DNA from: SAR202 cluster bacterium Io17-Chloro-G7 | GTDB taxonomy: Bacteria; Chloroflexota; Dehalococcoidia; UBA3495 | Length of the DNA: 17,716 bases | Reading direction: 5' to 3' | NCBI GenBank assembly: GCA_002817055.1 | Contig: MUCU01000025.1 | Span: 1-17,716, forward strand | In this document: piece by piece, positions 2,960-13,921 of the stretch | Layout: each line of letters begins with the position of its first letter | Numbering within the stretch: position 1 is the first letter of the stretch | Notes under the pieces: generated by a model | Database searches by the model: none | The model's input: only the letters and a program-made list of their open reading frames with translations | What the model was told of the DNA's origin: nothing | Position numbers and translations under genes: made by a program

Positions 2960-5900
2960 TTAGGCGCCAAGTACTTTACGCACTTTAGGGGCGTTCAAAA
3001 AGGCGTCGCGTATCTCTGATGATCCACAGCGGTCGGCGATGTAATTTACCGTATCTCTAGATTGTTGGATCAACTCGCCTCTTTCCAGAGCACTGTCTTC
3101 CAACACAGCAACTTGGCCCAACTCGAATAGAATGGGCCAAAGAGCACGCTTTGAACCTTGGACTAAGGCCATGTCGCGGGCTGTGGTCAGAACTTCACCA
3201 GCTTCTCTCACACGACCAAGCGCAAGCAGAGCCTGACCTTTAATCCGAAGTAAATCGGGAAAGAGAACAGACCTTCCGCTATTAGCGGCTCGCTCACTGT
3301 CTTCCAGATCGTACGCCAACACCAACTCACACTGCTGCTTGGCCAAAGCCAGCTCCCCTCTTAAGACATCGGGCAACGCAGATATCATTCCGAGGTATTC
3401 TATGTTGCGTTTAGACTCCATTTGGGGGTCTTCGTATGATATCTGAAGGGCCTCTTCTGCTTCACTAAGACGCCCGCTCTCGAGGTAGGCAAGGGCGAGA
3501 GAGATTGTGAAATACCAGAGCTGCCCGGGTGTCGCCAAGTCAATCGATATTAGAGCCTCGTCAAGTGCGTGATCGGCCATGCCACATAGTCCGTATATGG
3601 CCGAGGCTGTGCCGTGGAGGAGTGCTGACATAGCTCCTGTCGCTGCGTCGGATTTTGCGATCCCGTCTTCAACCGCTGCCAGAGCCAGTCCGACATCCCC
3701 AGTCTCCAGATGGGCCTGGGAAACCATCGCCAAGGCGGCCGCTTCCAGATGCACGCTTCCGATGGAATGGCTGATATCCAGCGCTTCTTCAATCATTTCG
3801 TATCCTGCAGCGTTGGCCCCCTCGGCAAAAATGACTCCGGCCGAGTTTATCAGGTTGTCGGCTAACATGGGCTGGTCTCCAAAATTGCGCCAGGAAATGC
3901 GAGCGCCTTCCAACGCTTCCTTTGCTTCCACGAATTGTCCAACGGCGAGATGGGAACGAGCCATATCTTGCAACGTGTAGGCGATCTGATCGCCAAGGTC
4001 ATACATACGGGCCATCTTCAACGAGTGTTCCCCAAATTCCAGCGCCTTGAAAAAGTCCTCTCCGGCCAGATTCTCAAGCAACATTCTCTGCCACAGAATC
4101 CGGGCTTGGGAAGGGTGATCGTTGATGTGCCCAGCCAGACTGAGCGACCGTTCTAATAACACTCGTGCCCTTTCCGGGTCAGGTTTAGCATTGATCGTTG
4201 AGTAGATGGTAACCATCGCTAGTAGGGCTGCCAATTCGAGAGCGGCATCCAAACCGACCCGCCCAAGCTCTTCTAGCTCCTGGTAACCGGACAGAGCATC
4301 GTCGAACAGGCCCCCGATTTCCTGGGTACGGCCACGAGCCATATAGAGTTCGATGAGTTGCTGGTTCGGCGTATCGCCCTGTCTAGCCAATTCAATAGCC
4401 CGAGAAAAATGAGTAGTTGCCTCATCGTTCGCGAACAGTCTTGCCGCAGCATCCCCCGCCATCACCGAGTATTCCAACGCCCGCCGGGTGTCTCCAGCTT
4501 GATTGAAGTGGTAGGCCAGTAAATGCGATTGCTCTTCCAGTCGACCACTAAAAATCTCTTCAATTGCCTGGCCAACCCGTCCGTGGAACTCTCGGCGTTC
4601 CCGCAATAGGATCGAGTTGTACGCCGCATCTCGCGTCAGATCATGCCGGAAGATGTACTCCAATTCCGGTACCCTTGCCGCTTCACGAATCAATTCCGCC
4701 CTCTGGAGAGTGTTGAGCTGCCTATCCAGGGTGATCGCCGCGTCGGATATCAAGTTGAGCACGCCGTGGTGGAACGACCGACCAATCACCGAACTCAACT
4801 GTAGGGTACGGCGGGCACTATCCCCCAGCTGGTCGATGCGCGCTGTAATCAACGCCAGCAAATTTTCCGGTATTGGCAGCTCTTCGATCCGGGTACCTGG
4901 CTTCCAATGCATTCCAGTTTGGTCTTGGGTTATGGCGCCGCTGTCGATGAGAGAGCGCATTAACTCTTCAAGAATTAGCGGGTTCCCTCCGGTCTTCGCT
5001 AGAATCATCTGACGGAGCTGGGGTGGAGAGTCAGACACGCTAAGTAGATTCCCAAAAAGTAAATCGCTTTCTCCGTCGGACAGCGCGGTCAACGAGATTT
5101 CTGTGTATCGGTGGGGGTATTCGGTCTCTGCGGTTTGCTTGATGCGCCAGGCCGGCGACTGTCGCTCGGGCCGGAAGGAGAATATCAAAAGAATCGGAAC
5201 CTCATCCACGAGCGACAAATTACTATCGATCAACATTTCCACCGATGCGGGGTCGGCCCAATGCAGATCGTCCAACACTATCACCGTCGGCCTGTGAGAC
5301 GCGGACGCATGAAAAATAGCGCGGTTGGCTTGGTACAGCTCTTGTTGAAGGGCTTCCCCTTGCAAGTGTGGTGCGTCTGAATCCGTTCCGACGGCAAACA
5401 ACGCTTCAATAACGCGGATCACTATATTTTGGACCTGGGGTGGGAAAGCCTCTTGTGTTTTGGCAACTTTGTCGCGCATCAGTGCCAAAGGATCGGTTTC
5501 CTCGATACCATATATCTGACGAGCGAGTTGCAAGAACAGCCCGAATGGGCGGGCCGTTTCGTAAGAAACTCCGTGGCCTTCGACCCAGGGCGCTTCGCTG
5601 CCAGCGATCCTTCTCCATTTGGCCTTGGCATCCTCTAGCAGGCTGGTTTTCCCGATCCCGGCCTCACCTATCAGGCAGACTATCCCACCGACTCCTAGGT
5701 GAAGATTCTCGAAGGCCTGGGTCATCGCTGAAATTTCGTTATCACGTCCAACTAGACGGGCACTCAGCCCCTCTATGCCTCTCAATCTGCCGGGAACGGC
5801 CTTCGGACCTATCACTCGATAGGCTGGCACAGGCTCACTCTTGCCCTTGACCTCAATCCCTCCCAGACTTTCAAAGTCGAAGATCGGTGCAATTAGATTG

Positions 5901-6694
5901 TAAGTATCGGCAGCGACTTGCACCGTACCCGTTTGAGCGGTCTGCTCCATACGGGCTGCGAGGTTGATTGCGTCACCCATGGCGGTATACTCGACCCGCA
6001 TGTCGGAACCGACCTCGCCTACGACCACCAAGCCGGTATTGATTCCGACTCGTACGCCGAAGTCCAGGTTCCATTTGCTCTTTACTTCCTCTTGATAAGC
6101 CCGGATACCCTGAACGATGTGCAGACCAGCCAATACTGCTCTCTGAGGGTCGTCTTCGTGGGCGATCGGCGGGCCGAAGAAGGCGAGGATAGCATCTCCC
6201 ATGAGGCGTGCCAAAGTGCCCTCGTACCGGTATATTGGGGAGATGAGGTACTCAAACGCCCCATTCATGATCTCGGCCCACTCTTCTGGGTCCAGACTCT
6301 CGGCTGCGGCCGTCGATCCGGTAACGTCGCAAAACAGCATGGTAACGACGCGGCGTTCGCTAGAAGCGACATCGTTGCGAGTCCCTTCCAGCTTGGCGAG
6401 TAGCTCCTTGGGGATGTACTGTTCAAGCCTGGCGCGGGATTTGTCCGCCTCTAGTGCAGGCTCATCTACCTGTGGAATTGTACGGGGAGAAATATCCGCC
6501 GCCGGAAGCGAGCTATCGAGATGTAGATCACGCTCTGCGGCAGCCAAATAGGCCAAAACATCTTGATTTTCAGGGTCAAGCCGTAGAGCGGATCGGGCAC
6601 GATCCCCTACGGTCTTCCAATCCTGATTAGCAATCGCCGCTTCGGCCTGATCTAAAAGGAGGTCGATCTGTCGTTGAACCCGCTCGCTTGGCAT
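2960..6694 (-). CDS. Class III nucleotidyl cyclase fused to STAND-type ATPase and TPR repeats
   Basis: A very large signalling protein. The open frame reaches a GTG at 6733; I prefer the ATG at 6694 because the protein then begins MPSERVQRQIDLLLDQAE, a helical TPR-like start. Numbering from the GTG, residues 14-75 form a TPR-like segment. Residues 127-310 are the cyclase domain, with metal ligands Asp136 (FCDVTGS) and Asp180 (RLMGDAILAFFG) and transition-state Asn257 and Arg261 (INLAARME). Residues 325-550 carry an ATPase with Walker A GEAGIGKTS (356-364) and Walker B VIVLDDLHWAD (484-494). The remaining ~600 residues are helical TPR-type repeats. Thr250 replaces the usual adenine-selecting Asp, as in class IIIb cyclases, and Arg176 stands where Lys is usual. 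There is no DNA-binding domain or membrane segment. It probably makes cAMP in response to a protein partner or metabolite; the signal is unknown. Confidence 0.9.
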   Translation of the reverse strand: MPSERVQRQIDLLLDQAEAAIANQDWKTVGDRARSALRLDPENQDVLAYLAAAERDLHLDSSLPAADISPRTIPQVDEPALEADKSRARLEQYIPKELLAKLEGTRNDVASSERRVVTMLFCDVTGSTAAAESLDPEEWAEIMNGAFEYLISPIYRYEGTLARLMGDAILAFFGPPIAHEDDPQRAVLAGLHIVQGIRAYQEEVKSKWNLDFGVRVGINTGLVVVGEVGSDMRVEYTAMGDAINLAARMEQTAQTGTVQVAADTYNLIAPIFDFESLGGIEVKGKSEPVPAYRVIGPKAVPGRLRGIEGLSARLVGRDNEISAMTQAFENLHLGVGGIVCLIGEAGIGKTSLLEDAKAKWRRIAGSEAPWVEGHGVSYETARPFGLFLQLARQIYGIEETDPLALMRDKVAKTQEAFPPQVQNIVIRVIEALFAVGTDSDAPHLQGEALQQELYQANRAIFHASASHRPTVIVLDDLHWADPASVEMLIDSNLSLVDEVPILLIFSFRPERQSPAWRIKQTAETEYPHRYTEISLTALSDGESDLLFGNLLSVSDSPPQLRQMILAKTGGNPLILEELMRSLIDSGAITQDQTGMHWKPGTRIEELPIPENLLALITARIDQLGDSARRTLQLSSVIGRSFHHGVLNLISDAAITLDRQLNTLQRAELIREAARVPELEYIFRHDLTRDAAYNSILLRERREFHGRVGQAIEEIFSGRLEEQSHLLAYHFNQAGDTRRALEYSVMAGDAAARLFANDEATTHFSRAIELARQGDTPNQQLIELYMARGRTQEIGGLFDDALSGYQELEELGRVGLDAALELAALLAMVTIYSTINAKPDPERARVLLERSLSLAGHINDHPSQARILWQRMLLENLAGEDFFKALEFGEHSLKMARMYDLGDQIAYTLQDMARSHLAVGQFVEAKEALEGARISWRNFGDQPMLADNLINSAGVIFAEGANAAGYEMIEEALDISHSIGSVHLEAAALAMVSQAHLETGDVGLALAAVEDGIAKSDAATGAMSALLHGTASAIYGLCGMADHALDEALISIDLATPGQLWYFTISLALAYLESGRLSEAEEALQISYEDPQMESKRNIEYLGMISALPDVLRGELALAKQQCELVLAYDLEDSERAANSGRSVLFPDLLRIKGQALLALGRVREAGEVLTTARDMALVQGSKRALWPILFELGQVAVLEDSALERGELIQQSRDTVNYIADRCGSSEIRDAFLNAPKVRKVLGA

Positions 6695-7079
6695 AATTAG
6701 GAATGGTAATACCGAGAGTGCGGATTCGTCCACTGTACTCGGGGGTCTTGCGCGCGTTGACCAGAACTGGTGAAAATCAGGATCATCAAAATGACTTCTT
6801 TATGATCTATTATCACCGAATCACACACCCCACCGCCCACTGTCTTCCAGGCCAGTGTTGGAGATGGTGTATTGGGCGAAAGGGAGAGCCCCCTCAACAA
6901 AGAGGTTGGGGGGAAATGCGCTATCAAACAAACAGGACGTTGGCCGAACGGTTACCTACTGACACTATCGTTTCATAGTGTCTCAGCGACTCCGGCAATC
7001 TCTGAAGATAGCCTGACTTTTTTATGTGTTGAGCAGTTCAGGCTGGAGAATGACAGACCATAGCTGTTCGTGGCATGTC
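6695..7079. other. Intergenic region upstream of the cyclase
   Basis: I find no gene here. The only clear structure is the hairpin at 6961-6982. A convincing -35/-10 pair for the cyclase was not found on the minus strand. Confidence 0.5.
6961..6982. repeat. Perfect 8-base-pair hairpin
   Basis: GACACTAT (6961-6968) pairs with ATAGTGTC (6975-6982) around the loop CGTTTC. It lies about 98 bases past the stop of the minus-strand dehydrogenase and upstream of the cyclase. It has no adjacent T-run, so a terminator, an operator or a dispersed repeat are all possible. Confidence 0.55.
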
Positions 7080-7973
7080 CTAATCGCGAGCAGCCCGAAT
7101 CTCGATCCCTGAAGACTCTTCCTGCAGGCGAACCGCTATCGTCCGGTCACTATTGCTCCAGCCTCGGTTCATAGCATGCATCATGATTTGTTCTACCAGG
7201 TTCGCCACCGGCATAGGCACGCCGCTGTGCCGGCCCAGGTCTGTCGCTAGCCCTAGGTCCTTTCGGGCCAGGTCCAGGGTAAAGACTGGTGGGTCGAACC
7301 CTCCCTGGAAAACTGTTGTCAGGCGTTCGGCCATTGCGCCCACTGGGCCGCGGCTCCCAGTGTCCAAAAGGACGGGAAGCTCGACACCAGCCTTGATGCC
7401 AAGCGCCAGAGCTTCGGCGACCACCTGCTGCATTGCGATGGTGGTCATATTGTGAACGAGCTTGCAGACATTAGCCGATCCTAGTCCTCCTGTGTAGACC
7501 ACTTTGTCGGCGAAGGCGTCAAGGATTAGATGCAGTCGGTCGAATATATCCCGTTCCCCTCCTGCCATCACGATCACACCTCTGTCCAGTGCGTCCAAAG
7601 GGCTGCTCAATACTGGGGTATCCATCACGTGAGCTCCCTTCTGTTTGAAGAGCGGCTCGAGGCTCCGGATAAGGTCCGGGCCACAGGTGGACATGTCCAT
7701 GTAGATTCCACCAGGCCGGATCCCTTCTAGTATCCCTTCAGGGCCATTCACCACCTGTTCGACAACTTGAGGCCTCGGTAAACAGGTGGCGACTACATCG
7801 CAAAGCTGCGCGACCTCCGCCGCAGACCCGACGAGTCGTGCACCACCATCCAGTAAAGGCCTAGTCGCTTCCTCTCGGGCGTCATAGACTACCATCGGGT
7901 AACCTGCTTTCTGTATGTTGACTGCCATTGGTGTGCCCATCTTGCCCATGCCTATGAACCCGACCGTGTCCAT
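7080..7973 (-). CDS. NAD(P)-dependent beta-hydroxyacid dehydrogenase (3-hydroxyisobutyrate dehydrogenase family)
   Basis: This 297-residue protein has the length and motif order of the 3-hydroxyisobutyrate/tartronate-semialdehyde reductase family, which interconverts beta-hydroxyacids and semialdehydes with NAD(P). It begins with the Rossmann motif GFIGMGKMG (residues 5-13). Asp31 at the end of the second strand suggests a preference for NAD. The catalytic Lys171 lies in GLGSANVCKLVHNM with Asn175 four residues on, and the C-terminal helix carries Lys238 in the usual LARKDL motif. An oddity is the substrate loop: DTPVLSSP (residues 118-125) stands where most members have DAPVSGG, so the substrate may be atypical. 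The ATG at 7973 has an excellent AGGAGGG ribosome binding site at 7981-7987. The gene stands alone and is divergent from the MaoC/CoA-transferase cluster. Confidence 0.92.
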   Translation of the reverse strand: MDTVGFIGMGKMGTPMAVNIQKAGYPMVVYDAREEATRPLLDGGARLVGSAAEVAQLCDVVATCLPRPQVVEQVVNGPEGILEGIRPGGIYMDMSTCGPDLIRSLEPLFKQKGAHVMDTPVLSSPLDALDRGVIVMAGGERDIFDRLHLILDAFADKVVYTGGLGSANVCKLVHNMTTIAMQQVVAEALALGIKAGVELPVLLDTGSRGPVGAMAERLTTVFQGGFDPPVFTLDLARKDLGLATDLGRHSGVPMPVANLVEQIMMHAMNRGWSNSDRTIAVRLQEESSGIEIRAARD

Positions 7974-8008
7974 ATTTTCGCCCTCCTAAGCTTGGTTTGT
8001 TCCAAAAG

Positions 8009-8017
8009 ATTATCACA
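8009..8017 (-). promoter_or_regulatory. Possible extended -10 promoter for the dehydrogenase
   Basis: On the minus strand TGTGATAAT fits an extended -10 element (TGn followed by GATAAT, five of six matches). No good -35 is present. It would give a leader of about 30 bases including the strong ribosome binding site. Confidence 0.3.
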
Positions 8018-8089
8018 TGACAGCCACAGACAGCGCCGGTTCACACACATCGCCATTGGTTTGTCCATTCGTCTGTCTACACGCTATCC

Positions 8090-8104
8090 TCGAATAGTAT
8101 TCGA
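8090..8104. promoter_or_regulatory. 15-base palindrome in the divergent region
   Basis: TCGAATAGTATTCGA is a perfect palindrome of two 7-base arms around a central G. It lies between the divergent dehydrogenase and MaoC genes, about 75 bases upstream of the possible -10 at 8009-8017. This is the expected form of a dimeric repressor or activator site; the protein is unknown. Confidence 0.4.
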
Positions 8105-8417
8105 CCTCCACAGTTGGCAGGTTGCGCGTTGTTGATCACGCCCTATTGGGGCTTAGGTCGGATACGAGCCGGCGATATATTTCCTCGATCTGGCAGCAAT
8201 GTTCGATCGCAAGTTTGCTTGAACCGAGTCTGCGCCCGGCTTTTTGAGACAGGCTCTCTCCCCCGTCCCCACCATAAAAATGCAATCAAGGGTTATGACA
8301 GGTACGCCAAGCAGCCGATGTTACACTATAAATCTGACTGGATTTCCTTTCTATTTGCAGAACTAAATAACCAATGACCTAAGGCAAGGCCAATTCCAGT
8401 GTAAATCGGGACGGATC
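8105..8417. other. Divergent intergenic DNA without a gene
   Basis: An 87-codon open frame here (8114-8377, plus strand) resembles nothing and has no good ribosome binding site, so I do not call it. A TATAAAT at 8327-8333 could be a -10 for the MaoC cluster but has no -35 at the right distance. Confidence 0.5.
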
Positions 8418-8430
8418 AATTGCGTACACG
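8418..8430. repeat. 13-base motif shared with 17515-17527
   Basis: AATTGCGTACACG is identical to the sequence at 17515-17527. Each copy lies just left of an intergenic palindromic element (8472-8516 here, 17535-17554 there), so it may be a boundary of the same mobile or dispersed repeat. Confidence 0.5.
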
Positions 8431-8471
8431 TCGTTGCCACGAGCGAACAGAGACTTCGAGACCGATCGCCT

Positions 8472-8516
8472 GAGCCAGTCGAAGGGTCTTATGCGAAGGG
8501 ATGGTTCGACAGGCAC
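8472..8516. repeat. REP-like inverted repeat, copy 1
   Basis: GAGCCAGTCGAA (8472-8483) faces TTCGACAGGCAC (8505-8516); the arms pair at 10 of 12 positions. The 13-base sequence TGAGCCAGTCGAA recurs exactly at 13085-13097, again followed by an inverted TTCGACA arm. Short palindromes built on a GTCGAA/TTCGAC core are common between genes in Chloroflexota. Confidence 0.6.
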
Positions 8517-8554
8517 ACCACGAGCGAATCAAATCGTCGCAGCCGATCATCCTG

Positions 8555-8574
8555 GGCTCGTCGAAAGACGAGCC
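8555..8574 (+). other. Hairpin with a GAAA tetraloop in the leader of the MaoC gene
   Basis: GGCTCGTC (8555-8562) and GACGAGCC (8567-8574) form a perfect 8-base-pair stem closed by GAAA, a GNRA-type loop, plus a possible outer G-U pair. It ends 25 bases before the ribosome binding site of the hydratase. In RNA this would be very stable. It could protect the mRNA 5' end, bind a protein, or simply be another member of the neighbouring palindrome family. Confidence 0.5.
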
Positions 8575-8613
8575 TCCGAATCCCAGTTCAATCAGAAACA
8601 AGGAGCCCACTCT

Positions 8614-9072
8614 ATGCAAGGGTTAGTGCGCTACTTCGAGGACGTGCGGATCGGCGAGGAGTTACCCGTCCTTCAAAAGCACATCAACTTGGCAAGGATG
8701 ATGGCCTATGGGGCGGCAACCTGGGATTTCATCCGAATTCATTACGACGCCGATTACGTTCGACAGCAAGGGTTCGACGCACCCTTTGTTGATGGGCAGA
8801 TGCTGGGCGGCTATTTGGCCCAGCAGGTTCAAGATTGGGCCGGACCCGACGCTTTCCTGCGCAAGCTGGGCTTTCGCAACCGGGTCATGGTCTATCCCGG
8901 CGACGTGTTGACCTTCCACGGAGTGGTTACCGCTTCTCAGACCCACGGAGACGAAGCCTTGGTGGAGTGCGACCTGTGGGTGGAAAACCAGAAGGGCGAC
9001 CGGGTCGTCCACCCGGCCAGTGCCGTGGTGCGTTTTCCTAGGAGAGGCGACAGCGGAGGTGCGCCTAGGTGA
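8614..9072 (+). CDS. MaoC-like hydratase/dehydratase
   Basis: This 152-residue hot-dog-fold protein belongs to the MaoC/hydratase-2 family, which adds water to or removes it from enoyl-CoA or related thioesters. The hydratase pair is visible as Asp38 and His43 in WDFIRIHYD, followed by the conserved loop GFDAPFVDGQML and the tail motif VYPGDVLTFHGVV. The reading frame extends upstream to 8434, but I chose the ATG at 8614 because an AAGGAG site lies 8 bases before it and the upstream codons run through the repeat and hairpin. It leads a plus-strand cluster and is followed after 56 bases by a CoA-transferase. At this length it is a single hot-dog domain, unlike the double-domain mesaconyl-CoA hydratases. 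Confidence 0.88.
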   Translation: MQGLVRYFEDVRIGEELPVLQKHINLARMMAYGAATWDFIRIHYDADYVRQQGFDAPFVDGQMLGGYLAQQVQDWAGPDAFLRKLGFRNRVMVYPGDVLTFHGVVTASQTHGDEALVECDLWVENQKGDRVVHPASAVVRFPRRGDSGGAPR

Positions 9073-9128
9073 ACCTCCGCAGAGAGTTTCTGCCAGGGCA
9101 AGTGACGCGTTGCCTGGGAGGCATTTAG

Positions 9129-10307
9129 GTGTTTCGCCCTTCGGCATTGTCGGACCTGAAGGTCTTGGAGTATGGGGACATGGTCCCTGGGGCCTACTGC
9201 GCTCGTCTGTTGGCTGATGCCGGAGCCGATGTGGTAAAGGTGGAGCCTCCCGCCGGCGACTCTGCCCGGCAGACGGGGCCGTTTCCCGGAAACGTGAAGG
9301 ACGCGGATTGGAGCGGTCTTTACCTTTATCTAAATGCCAATAAACGGGGCATTACCCTCGACGTAGCCCAAGATCAAGACTGGGCAGCTTTCCAGAAATT
9401 GACGGCTCAGGCCGACATTTTGGTGTTGGACCACACCGCAAAAGAGATCGATAGACTAGGACTGCGAAGGCACGACCTTGAACACCTGAACGCCAGCTTG
9501 ATAGTCACCGCCATCACGCCCTTCGGACTAACCGGCCCCAAGCGGGATTACATTGGCGATGACTTGATAGCGGTCAGCGCCGGTGGCATGGCCCATGCGA
9601 CACCCGGCATACCCGACATGATCCACGACCCGGAAAAGGAACCGCCGCTGCGGGCCAACGCATACGTCGGCGACATGCTGGCTGGTGTCCAAGGGGCCAT
9701 GGCTATCATGGTGGCGGTGTTGGGCCGGAGCTTGAACGGCGAGGGCTGCGAAGTAGACGTGAGCCGCCAGGAAGCAGTATCAATGGTACTTCCCTTCGAG
9801 CTTGCCCACGCATCCCACCACGAAGCAAAGAAGCGGGAACCAACCATCTTCGGGGCCATGCCCAATGCATACCTTCCCTGCAGCGACGGCTATGTGGTAA
9901 TCATGGCGGTCATAGACGCTCACTGGAAGGCACTGATGGACCTGACTGGCAATCCTGATTGGGGAGAAATCGAGATTTTCGCCAACGCCCAGGAACGGGC
10001 TCGCAATTGGGACGCGTTGGAGCCGTTGTTGCTGGCATGGACCATGAATCATACCGGCGCCGAAATCACACGCCTCGCCCAAGGGAGGGGCATCCCATGT
10101 TTCCCGGCTTACACGGTGGGAGAGATGGTGGAGTCGGAGCACGTCAAAGCCCGTGAGTTTATGTGGCAACTGGAAGGCCCTCAGGGCCAAAAATTTAAGC
10201 TGCCCGGTTATCCGGTGCGCATGGGCGCGACACCCTGGCAACTCCGGCGCCGGGCCCCAAAGTTCGGCGAGCACAACGCAGAAGTTCTCGCCGAGTGGCT
10301 CAAATAA
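9129..10307 (+). CDS. CaiB/BaiF class III CoA-transferase (first copy)
   Basis: This 392-residue enzyme moves CoA between carboxylic acids through an enzyme-bound aspartyl anhydride. Features seen are the N-terminal LEYGDMVPGAYCARLLADAG stretch, VVKVEPPAGD for the CoA-binding region, LNANKRGITLD, and the probable catalytic Asp182 in YVGDMLAG. The C-terminal FGEHNAEVLAEWL is typical of the family. The start is a GTG at 9129, seven bases after GGGAGG (9116-9121); no ATG lies nearby. It should be cytoplasmic and work with the preceding hydratase. It differs clearly from the second CoA-transferase downstream, so the two are unlikely to be a recent duplication. They may have separate substrates or form a heteromer such as is known for some class III enzymes. 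Confidence 0.93.
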   Translation: MFRPSALSDLKVLEYGDMVPGAYCARLLADAGADVVKVEPPAGDSARQTGPFPGNVKDADWSGLYLYLNANKRGITLDVAQDQDWAAFQKLTAQADILVLDHTAKEIDRLGLRRHDLEHLNASLIVTAITPFGLTGPKRDYIGDDLIAVSAGGMAHATPGIPDMIHDPEKEPPLRANAYVGDMLAGVQGAMAIMVAVLGRSLNGEGCEVDVSRQEAVSMVLPFELAHASHHEAKKREPTIFGAMPNAYLPCSDGYVVIMAVIDAHWKALMDLTGNPDWGEIEIFANAQERARNWDALEPLLLAWTMNHTGAEITRLAQGRGIPCFPAYTVGEMVESEHVKAREFMWQLEGPQGQKFKLPGYPVRMGATPWQLRRRAPKFGEHNAEVLAEWLK

Positions 10308-10371
10308 GCGTTGCGCCGAACTGATTAAAATCCGTGCCGCTAACTATTTGCAAACCCGAGCAGTCAAAAAG

Positions 10372-10393
10372 TCCCCCTTTCGTAAAAGGGGGA
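10372..10393. repeat. CCCCCTTT hairpin repeat, copy 1
   Basis: TCCCCCTTT (10372-10380) pairs perfectly with AAAGGGGGA (10385-10393) around CGTA. A near-identical hairpin occurs at 17394-17414. It sits between the two CoA-transferase genes, so it will be present in any shared mRNA and could stabilise or attenuate it. No T-run follows. Confidence 0.75.
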
Positions 10394-10480
10394 TTCAACC
10401 CGTCGATCAAGTTTGTTCGCCTATTCAGGGGCCAACAAAAAATGTTTAGTGCTGTTTAGTGCGTGGCAGCAATATTGGCA

Positions 10481-11692
10481 ATGAACAACCAGCCGCTAAA
10501 AGGAATCAGAGTCGCCGACTTCGGTCAAATCGTGGCCATGCCTTTTACCGCCCAAATCTTGGGCTGGCTGGGGGCAGAGGTAATTTTGGTGGAAACCAAA
10601 CACCGGCTGACCACCAGAGTATGGCCGCCCTTTGCCGAAGCACAGCCGGGAGTGAACCGCAGCGGCGGCTTCAATACCATAAATAACACCAAGCTGGGTG
10701 TTACTCTCAACCTCCGGGAACCCCAAGGAATGGAGCTTGCCAAGCGGCTGATTTCAATCAGCGATATCGTGGCCGAAAATTATTCCACCGGCACCATGGA
10801 ACGTATGGGAATTGGCTACCAAGAGATGCAACGGTTACGTCCCGACATCATTTATTTATCCCTTGGCGCATTCGGTCGCACCGGCCCCATGAAGGACCTG
10901 GCGGGATTTCACAGCGTGATCAACCTGTTCAGCGGTCTAGCGGCTGTCACCGGTCACCCCGGTTCTCACCCGCGCATTTTGGGCGGCATATTCCCCGACC
11001 CGTTCAGCGGTTGTTACTGCGTGCTGTCCCTCTTGGAAGCCCTGTATCACCGGTCCAAAACGGGTGAAGGCCAATATATCGAAGTCGCGATGACCGAGGC
11101 CCTAGCTACCCTTCTGCCCGAGGCGGTCATGGCTTACACCCTCAATGGAAAAGAGCCGGAACGGGTGGGCAACAAGCATCAGGACAAAGCTCCTCATGAC
11201 GTATTCCGTTGCAAAGGCGACCAGAAGTGGGTGGCTATTTCCGTGGAAAACGAGGCCCAATGGGAAGCCCTGTGCCGGGTTTTAGACCGTCCCGAATGGC
11301 AGCAAGACCCACGTTTCGCTGACGACGAAAAGCGCTTGGATAACCAGGATGTTCTCACACCGCTTATCGAGGCTTGGACATTAGCCAAGTCGCCAGAAGA
11401 GGTTGCCCGCGCGTTGCAGCAAGCGGGAGTTGCTGCGGCGCCGGTGCAGGATTCCGCGGAAGTACTGACGGACCCCCACCTTATAGACCGGGGGTTCGTG
11501 ACCTGGGTAGACCATCCGGAAACGGGTAGCCGGCCCATGGGCACGGTGTCTTGGGCCATCGATGGCGAAAAGCCCAAGGATTTCCGTCCCGCGCCTCTTA
11601 TGGGCGAGCATAACCGGTCCGTGTTCTGCGATTTGCTGGGCTTGCCGGAGGAAGAGGTGGCGCGGCTCATCGAGTCCGGCGTCATCGAGTAA
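10481..11692 (+). CDS. CaiB/BaiF class III CoA-transferase (second copy)
   Basis: A second class III CoA-transferase, 403 residues from the ATG at 10481. A GTG at 10463 would add six residues; neither start has a clear ribosome binding site, and I prefer the ATG because PLKGIRVADFGQIVAMPF is the normal family N-terminus. Visible motifs include LGAEVILVET, NTINNTKLGVTLNLREPQG, VAENYSTGTMERMG, YLSLGAFGRTGPMKD, and the probable catalytic Asp173 in GIFPDPFSG followed by TGEGQYIEVAMTEA. The C-terminus has PAPLMGEHNRSVFCDLLGL. It shares family motifs but little exact sequence with the upstream copy. The gap of about 170 bases between them holds a hairpin repeat. The triple-RidA gene follows 35 bases after its stop, so these two are probably co-transcribed. 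Confidence 0.93.
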   Translation: MNNQPLKGIRVADFGQIVAMPFTAQILGWLGAEVILVETKHRLTTRVWPPFAEAQPGVNRSGGFNTINNTKLGVTLNLREPQGMELAKRLISISDIVAENYSTGTMERMGIGYQEMQRLRPDIIYLSLGAFGRTGPMKDLAGFHSVINLFSGLAAVTGHPGSHPRILGGIFPDPFSGCYCVLSLLEALYHRSKTGEGQYIEVAMTEALATLLPEAVMAYTLNGKEPERVGNKHQDKAPHDVFRCKGDQKWVAISVENEAQWEALCRVLDRPEWQQDPRFADDEKRLDNQDVLTPLIEAWTLAKSPEEVARALQQAGVAAAPVQDSAEVLTDPHLIDRGFVTWVDHPETGSRPMGTVSWAIDGEKPKDFRPAPLMGEHNRSVFCDLLGLPEEEVARLIESGVIE

Positions 11693-11727
11693 ATGAAAGA
11701 TATATCTCGCCCATTGCAGGAGAAGTA

Positions 11728-12930
11728 ATGAGCAAAAACATTGTCGAAGTCGACCCCGACAAATTCCCATGGTTGGACTTGCGTCGCTACACCTTTAGTT
11801 TGGCCGCCGAGAACTCAGGAATTGTTTACCTATCGGGCCAGACTGCTAGCGAGTACGACCCCGATCCGGGAAAAGTGGTCTGCAAAGGCGACCTGTTGGA
11901 TCAGACCAGGGTCATTTACGAAAAGCTGGGGGTGATCCTAGACGCAGCCGGTCTCAGCTTCGACAACGTCGTGCAAACCGTAGACTACGTCGACCCTGTG
12001 GCCCTGCCCCAATACCGGCAAACCGGCGAGATTAGGCGACAATACCTGGGCGGCACCCCGGTTGGTTCCACGGGAATCTGTGTGGAGCGCCTGCTGCGTC
12101 CCGATGCCTTGATAGAAGTCAGCGCCATCGCCATGGATGGCGAAAAGGAGCTGGTTAACCCTTACGCCGATCAGTTCGCCCAAGTAACCTACGTGCCGGG
12201 AGTTGAAGTGGACGGCATCATCTGGCTGTCCGGTTTCATTGGTTATGAGGACGACAACGGCGCACGCAAATATTCCAGGGATACCAACCGGCAGGTAGAA
12301 CTGTCCTACGGGATCATATCGGGTGTCTTGGAAGCTGCCGGGTCGGTCCCCGGCGATGTGGTAAAAAGCCTGGATTACATTTCTCCCCAAGCGCTGCTCC
12401 AATACCCCGATAGCGCCGCAGCCCGCCGCGACTTCTACCAAGGTTCCTACCCGGCGGCCACCGGCATACCCATCAACCGGCTGCTTCGCCCGGAAGGGCA
12501 CGTGGAGGTGGAGACCATCGCCGTGAAGGGCGGTAGCCGGGAAGAGATACGAATTCCAGAGTGGGACCGGCGCTACCAGGAATTGACCTACCACCCTGGC
12601 ATCAAGAAGGGGCACATGCTGCACATCTCCGGGCAGGCGGCGGTGGACCACACTAACGGAGAAAGCGTCGGCGGCTTTGACATGACCGCCCAAGCGGACA
12701 AGGCCTACGAAAACATTGCCCGGGTGCTGTCGGAGGCGGGTTATTCCATGGACGACGTTGTGAATACTATAGAATGGATTGCCCCCAACGGGTTGATGGG
12801 GTACCGGGGCACCCAAGACGTGCGCCGCAAGTACTTCGGTGAGAGCTTTCCTTCAGCCACCGGGGTGATCATCCACCAAATTTTACGACCGAAACTACTC
12901 TTCGAGGTTACTGCTGTGGCATTGGTTTAG
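11728..12930 (+). CDS. Triple-domain RidA/YjgF-like protein (single-chain trimer)
   Basis: This 400-residue protein consists of three consecutive RidA/YjgF (YER057c/UK114) domains at about 19-138, 150-268 and 282-400. Each repeats the same marks: an early strand YLSGQTA, WLSGFIG or HISGQAA; a mid segment VDYVDP, LDYISP or IEWIAP; and a closing TGICVERLLRP, TGIPINRLLRP or TGVIIHQILRP followed by an EV-AIA strand. Ordinary RidA proteins are about 130 residues and form homotrimers with ligand pockets at the subunit interfaces, so this looks like a covalent trimer. The arginine that binds the substrate carboxylate in enamine/imine deaminases (Arg105 of the archetype) aligns with Ser, Thr or Ala-type positions in all three domains, so deaminase activity is doubtful. 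The ATG follows AGGAGA (11718-11723). It ends the plus-strand cluster. Confidence 0.92.
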   Translation: MSKNIVEVDPDKFPWLDLRRYTFSLAAENSGIVYLSGQTASEYDPDPGKVVCKGDLLDQTRVIYEKLGVILDAAGLSFDNVVQTVDYVDPVALPQYRQTGEIRRQYLGGTPVGSTGICVERLLRPDALIEVSAIAMDGEKELVNPYADQFAQVTYVPGVEVDGIIWLSGFIGYEDDNGARKYSRDTNRQVELSYGIISGVLEAAGSVPGDVVKSLDYISPQALLQYPDSAAARRDFYQGSYPAATGIPINRLLRPEGHVEVETIAVKGGSREEIRIPEWDRRYQELTYHPGIKKGHMLHISGQAAVDHTNGESVGGFDMTAQADKAYENIARVLSEAGYSMDDVVNTIEWIAPNGLMGYRGTQDVRRKYFGESFPSATGVIIHQILRPKLLFEVTAVALV

Positions 12931-13084
12931 CGGAGTTTTGGCTGAGGCGATAAAAGCTTTCTATTAGCCTTGGCATCTTCGAATAATCTAAGGTAAACGG
13001 GTAACACTCATAGTTTGCTCTAGCCGAGAATTTTTCACCCGGCGAATCGTCACGCTACACACCTTGTCACGCACAAGTTGGTGG

Positions 13085-13130
13085 TGAGCCAGTCGAACCA
13101 CTTTGCGCATTCAGACCCTTCGACAAGCTC
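13085..13130. repeat. REP-like inverted repeat, copy 2
   Basis: TGAGCCAGTCGAA (13085-13097) faces TTCGACAAGCTC (13119-13130); arms pair at 10 of 12 positions over a 21-base spacer. It lies in the 253-base convergent gap between the RidA gene and the unknown gene at 13184, the only obvious structure there, and might serve as a two-way terminator, although no T-run is present. Confidence 0.6.
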
Positions 13131-13183
13131 CGGGCGAACGGACGATTCAAATTCATATCTCCATACTTTTATCCGTAGGTGCA

Positions 13184-13921
13184 CTAAGAATCGGCCTGTT
13201 CCTCTTGGCCATCAACCGTTGGCTCATCGGCCAGTTCTTCTTCCTCAGACTCTTCGACAGACTCCTCGACGCCAGCTTGTTCCTGGGTGGCGGCCGCCCG
13301 CTGGTTTTGCTGCTGTATCATCCAGTTCTGTAGCCAGCGGCGGAACTCGTCCAGAGCCGGTGGGGACACGTAGAAGACTTCAATGTCCTGGGGGAACTGG
13401 ACCTGATGCCGCTCGCTGATCAGCAGCAGGCCAACCTCATTTTCCCCCAGGGTGGAGTCGATTTGACTGGCAATGTGATCGTATCGGGTTTTGTTGGCCT
13501 CGGTAAACCATTCCTGTAGTTTTTGGGCGACGGCGCCGCTGGCAAGAGGGACCATCATGCACCGCTGTAAATCCAGGGTTTCCAACAAGATTTCGGTGTC
13601 TTCGGTCGCTTCCAATGCCGCACCGTCGTCACACTTGGATTTCACGAAGGCGTGGCTTCGTTGGTCCGCTTGGGATAGTTGCGATAGTCCCGTTTCCCCA
13701 CCATCGGGAAGGCTTTCGTGGTAGATGTGGTGCAGCCCGCCCAAAGCCGCAACAAGGGACTCCACCTGCGTTTGCATCTGGTCCCAGTATTTCTGTAGTA
13801 CAACAACGCCTTCGGGAGCATTGGCCTGGGGTCCGTATACCAAAGGCACCAACAGAAGCTTTCTGCGACCTTCGTACTGACCGACGGCGGGCCTGGATAT
13901 TCGACCTAGCTCCTGAGCCAT
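13184..13921 (-). CDS. Protein of unknown function with an acidic C-terminal tail
   Basis: I do not recognise this 245-residue protein with certainty. It has no signal peptide or membrane segment. The ordered part ends with CMMVPLASGAVAQKLQEWF, a basic stretch, then VGLLLISERHQVQFPQDIEV and FYVSPPALDEFRRWL, which resembles the pattern of an L7Ae/eRF1-domain-3-like fold in bacterial release-factor relatives; this is a weak resemblance. The last ~40 residues are low complexity and strongly acidic (VEESVEESEEEELADEP). The ATG at 13921 is preceded by GAGGTG at a good distance. It is the last gene of the minus-strand series, 114 bases after the binding-protein gene, and convergent with the RidA gene. 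Codon pattern and the absence of interruptions support it as a real gene. Confidence 0.75.
   Translation of the reverse strand: MAQELGRISRPAVGQYEGRRKLLLVPLVYGPQANAPEGVVVLQKYWDQMQTQVESLVAALGGLHHIYHESLPDGGETGLSQLSQADQRSHAFVKSKCDDGAALEATEDTEILLETLDLQRCMMVPLASGAVAQKLQEWFTEANKTRYDHIASQIDSTLGENEVGLLLISERHQVQFPQDIEVFYVSPPALDEFRRWLQNWMIQQQNQRAAATQEQAGVEESVEESEEEELADEPTVDGQEEQADS

What the first reader, a model, noticed from the sequence alone, without database searches (positions are those of the whole stretch)
11728..12930. Three RidA domains in one chain, a covalent pseudo-trimer
Seen directly: three successive copies of the same strand-helix pattern, each closing with a TG-I-x-x-LLRP-type motif. 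Known: RidA/YjgF proteins are ~130-residue homotrimers with ligand sites at subunit interfaces. Inference: fusion lets the three interfaces diverge, so one chain could hold three different pockets. None of the three domains has the arginine of the deaminase site (domain 1 has Ser-Thr, domains 2 and 3 Ala-Thr at that place), so a new ligand or reaction, or a scaffold role, is likely.
Basis: partly seen in the sequence, partly recalled or inferred. Interest (0 to 1): 0.7.

Follow-up and report, generated by a model that had tools for sequence, protein, structure and literature searches.

The report
Three fused RidA domains, one pseudo-trimer
One protein of a bacterium related to Dehalococcoidia is made of three RidA domains that are predicted to fold together like the usual ring of three separate RidA chains; the arrangement was described in 2015, but here all three sites lack the usual arginine and the gene lies among genes for enzymes that handle CoA-linked acids.

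Summary

Added here: (1) an R105-less 3x family (240 closest homologues examined); (2) pockets differ by domain: the Glu120-equivalent is E/E/E in the window's group, E/Q/E in a second, and in domain 2 only in four further loci; (3) linkage to MaoC hydratases (21 of 27 loci) and class III CoA-transferases (14 of 27), against 0 of 52 control Rid loci within 1.5 kb; (4) a helix-2 arginine in all three domains of 236 of 240 homologues, never found together with R105 in 87 other Rids.

Most likely an enzyme of a CoA-thioester catabolic pathway. Substrate and reaction are inferred, not shown, and the published finding that Glu120 can be replaced in one RidA with little effect weakens the argument from Glu.

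The parts
11728..12930 (+). gene for the three-domain Rid (3x-RidA type) protein, 400 aa
11728..12144 (+). domain 1 (residues 1-139); R105-equivalent Ser114 (12067-12069), helix-2 Arg103 (12034-12036), Glu120-equivalent Glu130 (12115-12117)
   Evidence: secondary structure of the model
12145..12537 (+). domain 2 (residues 140-270); Ala244 (12457-12459), Arg233 (12424-12426), Glu260 (12505-12507)
12538..12927 (+). domain 3 (residues 271-400); Ala377 (12856-12858), Arg366 (12823-12825), Glu393 (12904-12906)
10463..11692 (+). class III CoA-transferase (CaiB2), ends 35 bases before the Rid gene
   Evidence: PF02515 E 1.6e-106
9129..10307 (+). class III CoA-transferase (CaiB1); its counterpart is fused to that of CaiB2 in L114
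   Evidence: PF02515 E 1.6e-89; L114
8614..9072 (+). MaoC-type hydratase subunit (MaoC-C); probable start ATG 8614 after AAGGAG, inside the longer TTG ORF 8434-9072
   Evidence: PF01575 E 1e-6; sequence

Best explanation
It is a 3x-RidA-type protein: three RidA domains in one chain that fold into one covalent pseudo-trimer with three interface pockets (predicted). It is most likely an enzyme of a CoA-thioester catabolic cluster: the paired class III CoA-transferases would load a carboxylic acid onto CoA, MaoC (and in relatives enoyl-CoA hydratase and acyl-CoA dehydrogenase) would desaturate or hydrate it, and the Rid protein would hydrolyse or tautomerise an unstable enol-, enamine- or imine-like intermediate. 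Shown: three domains, no R105, gene linkage, domain-wise conservation. Predicted: pseudo-trimer packing. Inferred: that it is catalytic, that the substrate is CoA-linked (with the carboxylate masked, R105 would not be needed), and that the helix-2 arginines face the pockets.
Against: No substrate or activity is known to me for any member. Replacing R105 abolished or almost abolished activity in the RidA and RutC proteins named in the passages (PMC4433059, PMC8113886). Replacing the Tyr17 and Glu120 equivalents had little effect in S. enterica RidA (PMC4433059 passage), so conserved Glu is weak evidence for catalysis. Six of 27 three-domain loci (L075, L113, L116-L119) have no MaoC neighbour, and 13 of 27 no CaiB. 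The window itself has no match to the MaoC-N or enoyl-CoA hydratase of L001. No coordinates were available, so pocket geometry was not measured. Linkage does not show which step the protein takes. On re-reading the Glu passage I lowered this confidence from 0.45 to 0.42 and raised the scaffold rival.
Confidence: 0.42

Rival explanations
1. Classic Rid chemistry with a moved arginine: the helix-2 Arg (R103, R233, R366; E. coli position 91) does the work of R105, and the protein deaminates an imino or enamino acid formed nearby.
For: Helix-2 Arg in all three domains of 236 of 240 homologues and of 25 of 27 distinct proteins in a wider set (28 rows, two of them the same protein). In 88 distinct Chloroflexota Rids taken as single-domain (1 gapped row left out, so 87), R105 and R91 never occur together: 0 of 34 with R105, 34 of 53 without. 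Positions 84, 88 and 91 fall on one helix face by spacing, and Asn88 is a listed active-site residue (PMC5979572 passage). An amidase family recurs in 5 of 27 loci, so nitrogen chemistry is possible.
Against: The counts are not independent: R105 needs 5 changes on the tree, and 2 (supported branches) to 5 (all branches) independent pairs give no significant test. The helix Arg stays even in domains that lost the Glu (L110-L112, L114), so it may be structural. No PLP enzyme or amine oxidase was named among the neighbours scanned, but not all neighbours were scanned.
Confidence: 0.2
2. Non-catalytic partner: the pseudo-trimer is a scaffold or stabiliser for the MaoC subunits or the CoA-transferases.
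For: No R105 in any domain; close linkage to MaoC, with overlapping frames in L005; pocket Glu not essential in a tested RidA (passage).
Against: The pocket Glu is kept in group-specific patterns, which a plain scaffold would not need; six of 27 three-domain loci lack MaoC neighbours.
Confidence: 0.23
3. A chorismatase-like hydrolase of an enol ether using one interface only.
For: Best whole-chain structural match of both models is chorismatase; chorismatase is listed among YjgF-family activities (PMC4433059 passage).
Against: Identity only 15-20% in those alignments; no chorismatase family at E <= 0.1 in the Pfam and NCBIfam scans; no chorismate-pathway gene named among the neighbours scanned; a shared fold does not show function.
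Confidence: 0.07

Closest known systems
3x-RidA proteins (e.g. EF_0115 of Enterococcus faecalis; Niehaus et al. 2015, PMC4433059, passages)
   Same: three RidA domains fused in tandem, proposed covalent trimer
   Different: EF_0115 was not compared here; the passages seen do not tell the R105 status of 3x proteins or any MaoC/CaiB linkage. Here R105 is absent from all three domains
Chorismatase (PDB 4bps, 5a3k, 5ag3)
   Different: 15-20% identity; no chorismatase family hit; gene context of chorismatases not examined
Cyanuric acid hydrolase AtzD, 'Toblerone' fold (PMC3758960, passages)
   Same: three concatenated YjgF-type units in one chain
   Different: AtzD units have four-stranded sheets, Ser-Lys pairs and a central active site; AtzD was not among the rows shown
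FBXO22 (chains 8ua3_C, 8ua6_C, 8s7d_D, 8s7e_B)
   Different: 7-8% identity; F-box protein; not among the rows shown for the window's own model
Single-domain RidA, RutC, YabJ
   Different: the RidA, RutC and YabJ rows aligned have R105 (RutC: Arg104, PMC8113886 passage) and are separate chains that trimerise

Membership tests
RidA/YjgF domain family (PF01042) | profile match over the curated cut-off | tested here: met
   139.5 bits against 27.3, three stretches
3x-RidA (Niehaus 2015) | three Rid domains fused in tandem in one chain | tested here: met
3x-RidA (Niehaus 2015) | chain forms one covalent trimer unit | tested here: inconclusive
   predicted packing agrees; oligomeric state cannot be measured here
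RidA imine deaminase | arginine at position 105 | tested here: not met
   Ser114, Ala244, Ala377
RidA imine deaminase | glutamate at position 120 | tested here: met
   Glu130 120/120, Glu260 118/120, Glu393 119/120 in the window's group
RidA imine deaminase | tyrosine (or Phe) at position 17 | tested here: met
   Phe23, Tyr155, Tyr288 in the window protein; in its group domain 3 varies, Gln in 62 of 120
RidA imine deaminase | asparagine at position 88 | tested here: not met
   Gly100, Ala230, Gln363 in the window protein
RidA imine deaminase | deaminase activity | not testable with these tools
   needs a bench assay
Chorismatase | whole-chain fold | tested here: met
Chorismatase | catalytic residues and chorismate hydrolysis | not tested
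   no residue-level structural alignment was available
AtzD/barbiturase Toblerone fold | overall fold with central site | tested here: inconclusive
   not among the rows shown
AtzD/barbiturase Toblerone fold | three Ser/Lys pairs | not tested
   no alignment to AtzD made

The most novel reading that the evidence does not exclude
A Rid pseudo-trimer in which the substrate-binding arginine has moved from strand 5 to helix 2 in all three domains, and in which separate lineages have kept three, two or one of the three pocket glutamates, forming a new enzyme of CoA-thioester catabolism (an enol/enamine acyl-CoA hydrolase or tautomerase) that works with a two-part MaoC hydratase and a paired CoA-transferase.
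Probability: 0.14. Interest if true: 0.7.

Novelty: new variant of a known kind. Interest (0 to 1): 0.42.

Why it matters
Rid subfamilies without Arg105 have no assigned function (the abstract of PMC4433059 says Rid4-Rid7 'remain mysterious'). A fused trimer with domain-specific pockets lets each pocket be tested by mutation in one chain, which homotrimers do not allow, and the conserved gene cluster suggests where to look for a substrate: CoA-linked breakdown of carboxylic acids.

Tried and rejected
Rejected: chance repeat (shuffles). Rejected: fusion as the cause of the arginine loss, because 53 of 87 other Chloroflexota Rids also lack R105. Not upheld: repeated correlated swaps of R105 and R91; only 2 to 5 independent pairs, no significant sign test. 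Plasmid records gave no near-full-length match (0 of 74 matching records cover 80% of the query). Literature: searches for the architecture and for a link with CoA-transferases or MaoC (listings) showed the term 3x-RidA only in PMC4433059 and nothing recognisable on the cluster; two papers on Enterococcus faecalis listed for the term EF0115 (PMC3084688, PMC6834293) and the preprint PMC11185555 on F-box proteins were not opened. In PMC6946804 six terms (RidA, YjgF, MaoC and others) had no occurrence; PMC5395668 mentions CaiB but not RidA or MaoC. One promoter-like site and ten terminator-like sites were found in 7900-13300, means of shuffles 2.7 and 5.7; not used. No tRNA, and no Rfam match at gathering level, in the window. 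AtzD did not appear among the rows shown, which proves nothing.

Limits: searches list the best 120 of 590 and of 699 hits, so the 240 homologues are the closest ones, not a sample of the family. The comparison Rids come only from Chloroflexota, were found by similarity to this protein or by PF01042 in three genomes, and were taken as single-domain without checking each; several lie in open frames of 200-414 aa. In one search, 2 of 47 loci gave no usable domain and 1 of 88 rows was gapped at the site. Flanks differ and some loci are cut by contig ends. The 52 control loci have shorter flanks than the loci, so only one search compares like with like. The domain tree is a quick one with few columns: D1 rows of all groups join with SH-aLRT 85, while the placing of D2 and D3 of the window's group relative to the others is unresolved. 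In one search the far relatives (L109-L119) may be misaligned at single sites. The 15 genomes were picked because their three-domain locus has MaoC.

Full report
Observation. The ORF at 11728-12930 on the + strand is 400 codons from an ATG; the three database homologues aligned (P0017, P0023, P0107) begin at the same Met. Pfam finds three stretches of PF01042 and NCBIfam three of TIGR00004, over its cut-off. The thirds are 33-36% identical and score about 30-35 standard deviations above shuffles. Each third matches solved RidA structures by sequence on its own (domain 1: 2dyy E 1.7e-11; domain 2: RutC 5.6e-6; domain 3: 2dyy 2.7e-12). The arginine of the deaminase site is replaced by Ser114, Ala244 and Ala377 (domain 2 by alignment to E. 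coli YjgF 1qu9; the others through the domain alignments).

Already known. Niehaus et al. 2015 (PMC4433059; abstract and passages) state that a subset of RidA proteins, '3x-RidA', has three domains fused in tandem, e.g. EF_0115, and is presumably a covalently linked trimer unit. Another case of concatenated YjgF-type units is cyanuric acid hydrolase AtzD (PMC3758960; passages). The central idea of the finding is therefore not new.

Family. A search with the protein gave 590 hits at E <= 1e-3 among 7999 scored candidates, and one with a relative 699 among 7994. The best 120 of each were used (240 proteins; 114 are 400-409 aa, the others 340-429). Names given by sources include Dehalococcoidia, Chloroflexota, Candidatus Tectomicrobia, Candidatus Entotheonella, Nitrospinae, Alphaproteobacteria and Burkholderiaceae. 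In the order of the closest genome 19 of 197 genomes match at E <= 1e-20. In the phylum 223 of 301 match at 1e-3, mostly over one domain; of the matches listed there, those of G001 (89%), G287 (39%) and G140 (in pieces) are three-domain. In a domain tree (134 rows; quick method) the 90 rows of three-domain proteins are separated from 44 other Rid rows by a branch of SH-aLRT 99, and the domain-1 rows of the three main groups join (85). This favours one old triplication and separate evolution of the positions, but the tree does not resolve domains 2 and 3 of the window's group.

Pockets. RidA active-site residues are Tyr17, Ser30, Asn88, Arg105 and Glu120 (passage in PMC5979572). In the window protein Arg105 and Asn88 are gone in all three domains, while the Glu120-equivalent stays: Glu130 in 120, Glu260 in 118 and Glu393 in 119 of the 120 closest homologues, the protein itself included. 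Over all 240 the pattern over domains 1-2-3 is EEE in 117, EQE in 116 and other in 7. Among 28 rows of the wider set (27 distinct proteins) L110-L112 and L114 keep the Glu in domain 2 only; L075 and L109 have lost it in domain 1, as has L119 (Cys); L106, L108 and L113 have Gln in domain 3. Against a simple catalytic reading: replacing the Tyr17 and Glu120 equivalents by Ala had little effect on S. enterica RidA (PMC4433059 passage).

A second arginine. At E. coli position 91, on helix 2 and in line with positions 84 and 88 by helix spacing, an Arg is present in all three domains of 236 of 240 homologues and of 25 of 27 distinct proteins in the wider set (exceptions L116 and L117, domain 2). 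Among 88 distinct other Rids of Chloroflexota, 1 gapped row left out, none of 34 with R105 has R91, against 34 of 53 without R105 (Fisher p 9e-11, ignoring ancestry). On the tree this rests on few events and is not significant. The Arg also stays where the Glu is lost, so a structural role is possible. I report it as a lead, not a result.

Neighbourhood. Upstream in the window lie two class III CoA-transferases and a MaoC hydratase subunit on the same strand. In L001-L007 MaoC-C and MaoC-N are present in 7 of 7, the CoA-transferase pair and the enoyl-CoA hydratase in 5 of 7 each. In L005 the called MaoC-C and Rid frames overlap by 4 bases. Over 27 loci (26 plus the window) MaoC proteins occur in 21, CaiB in 14, enoyl-CoA hydratase in 9, luciferase-like monooxygenase in 8, SDR in 6, acyl-CoA dehydrogenase in 5 and amidase in 5; families are named from one representative each. 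The six loci without MaoC are L075, L113 and L116-L119. Within +-1.5 kb, 13 of 25 have MaoC and 9 of 25 CaiB (19 of 25 either), against 0 of 52 other Rid loci. MaoC-N genes (PF13452) number 5-11 per genome in 15 genomes picked because they hold a linked locus, so adjacency by chance is unlikely. L108 carries MaoC-N and MaoC-C as one protein and L114 both CoA-transferases as one. A study of SAR202 genomes stresses expanded CoA-transferases that feed acids into CoA-linked oxidation (PMC5395668, passages); whether this organism is SAR202 was not tested. The nearest named relative is Dehalococcoidia bacterium UBA1141 (L001).

Reading. The evidence fits an enzyme that works on a CoA-linked or otherwise carboxylate-masked intermediate, with R105 dispensable because there is no free alpha-carboxylate to hold. 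Hydrolysis of an enamine or imine bond is the activity reported for RidA and RutC (passages); extension to enols and tautomerisation is my inference. No call shows the substrate. The pseudo-trimer itself I hold at about 0.9, the functional reading at about 0.3, and the joint statement at 0.42 (lowered from 0.45 after re-reading the Glu120 passage).

Noticed in passing
window 7973-8614: MaoC-N and enoyl-CoA hydratase, which lie upstream of MaoC-C in relative L001 (Rid protein 89% identical), have no tblastn hit at 1e-4 in the window; a 3-hydroxyisobutyrate dehydrogenase-like gene on the other strand (7080-7973) lies there instead.
   Followed up: partly
window 8505-8523 and 13079-13097: A 19-base motif made from the first copy recurs once, inverted and with 2 mismatches, on the other side of the gene block (0.01 matches expected by chance).
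   Followed up: partly
window 13184-13921 (-): A 245-aa ORF facing the Rid gene, found in 8 of 27 loci counting the window; its L001 relative has no Pfam match at 0.01.
   Followed up: no
window 2960-6733 (-): A 1257-aa protein that by eye carries a nucleotide-cyclase-like region, an ATPase region and repeats; not scanned.
   Followed up: no
genomes G001, G002, G003 (of L001, L003, L005): Many Rid domains: 18, 15 and 8 PF01042 matches per genome, the three of each 3x protein counted singly.
   Followed up: no
L111 9230-10185: MaoC-C and MaoC-N matches are split into pieces in genome G317, possibly sequencing errors.
   Followed up: no
genome G273 (L077, L078): Six short Rid frames (132-153 aa), 36-45% identical to domain 3, two contigs with two each.
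   Followed up: no
L103 14434-15999 and relatives in L005, L105: An HpaB-type hydroxylase (PF03241/PF11794) recurs in three loci that lack the CaiB pair.
   Followed up: no
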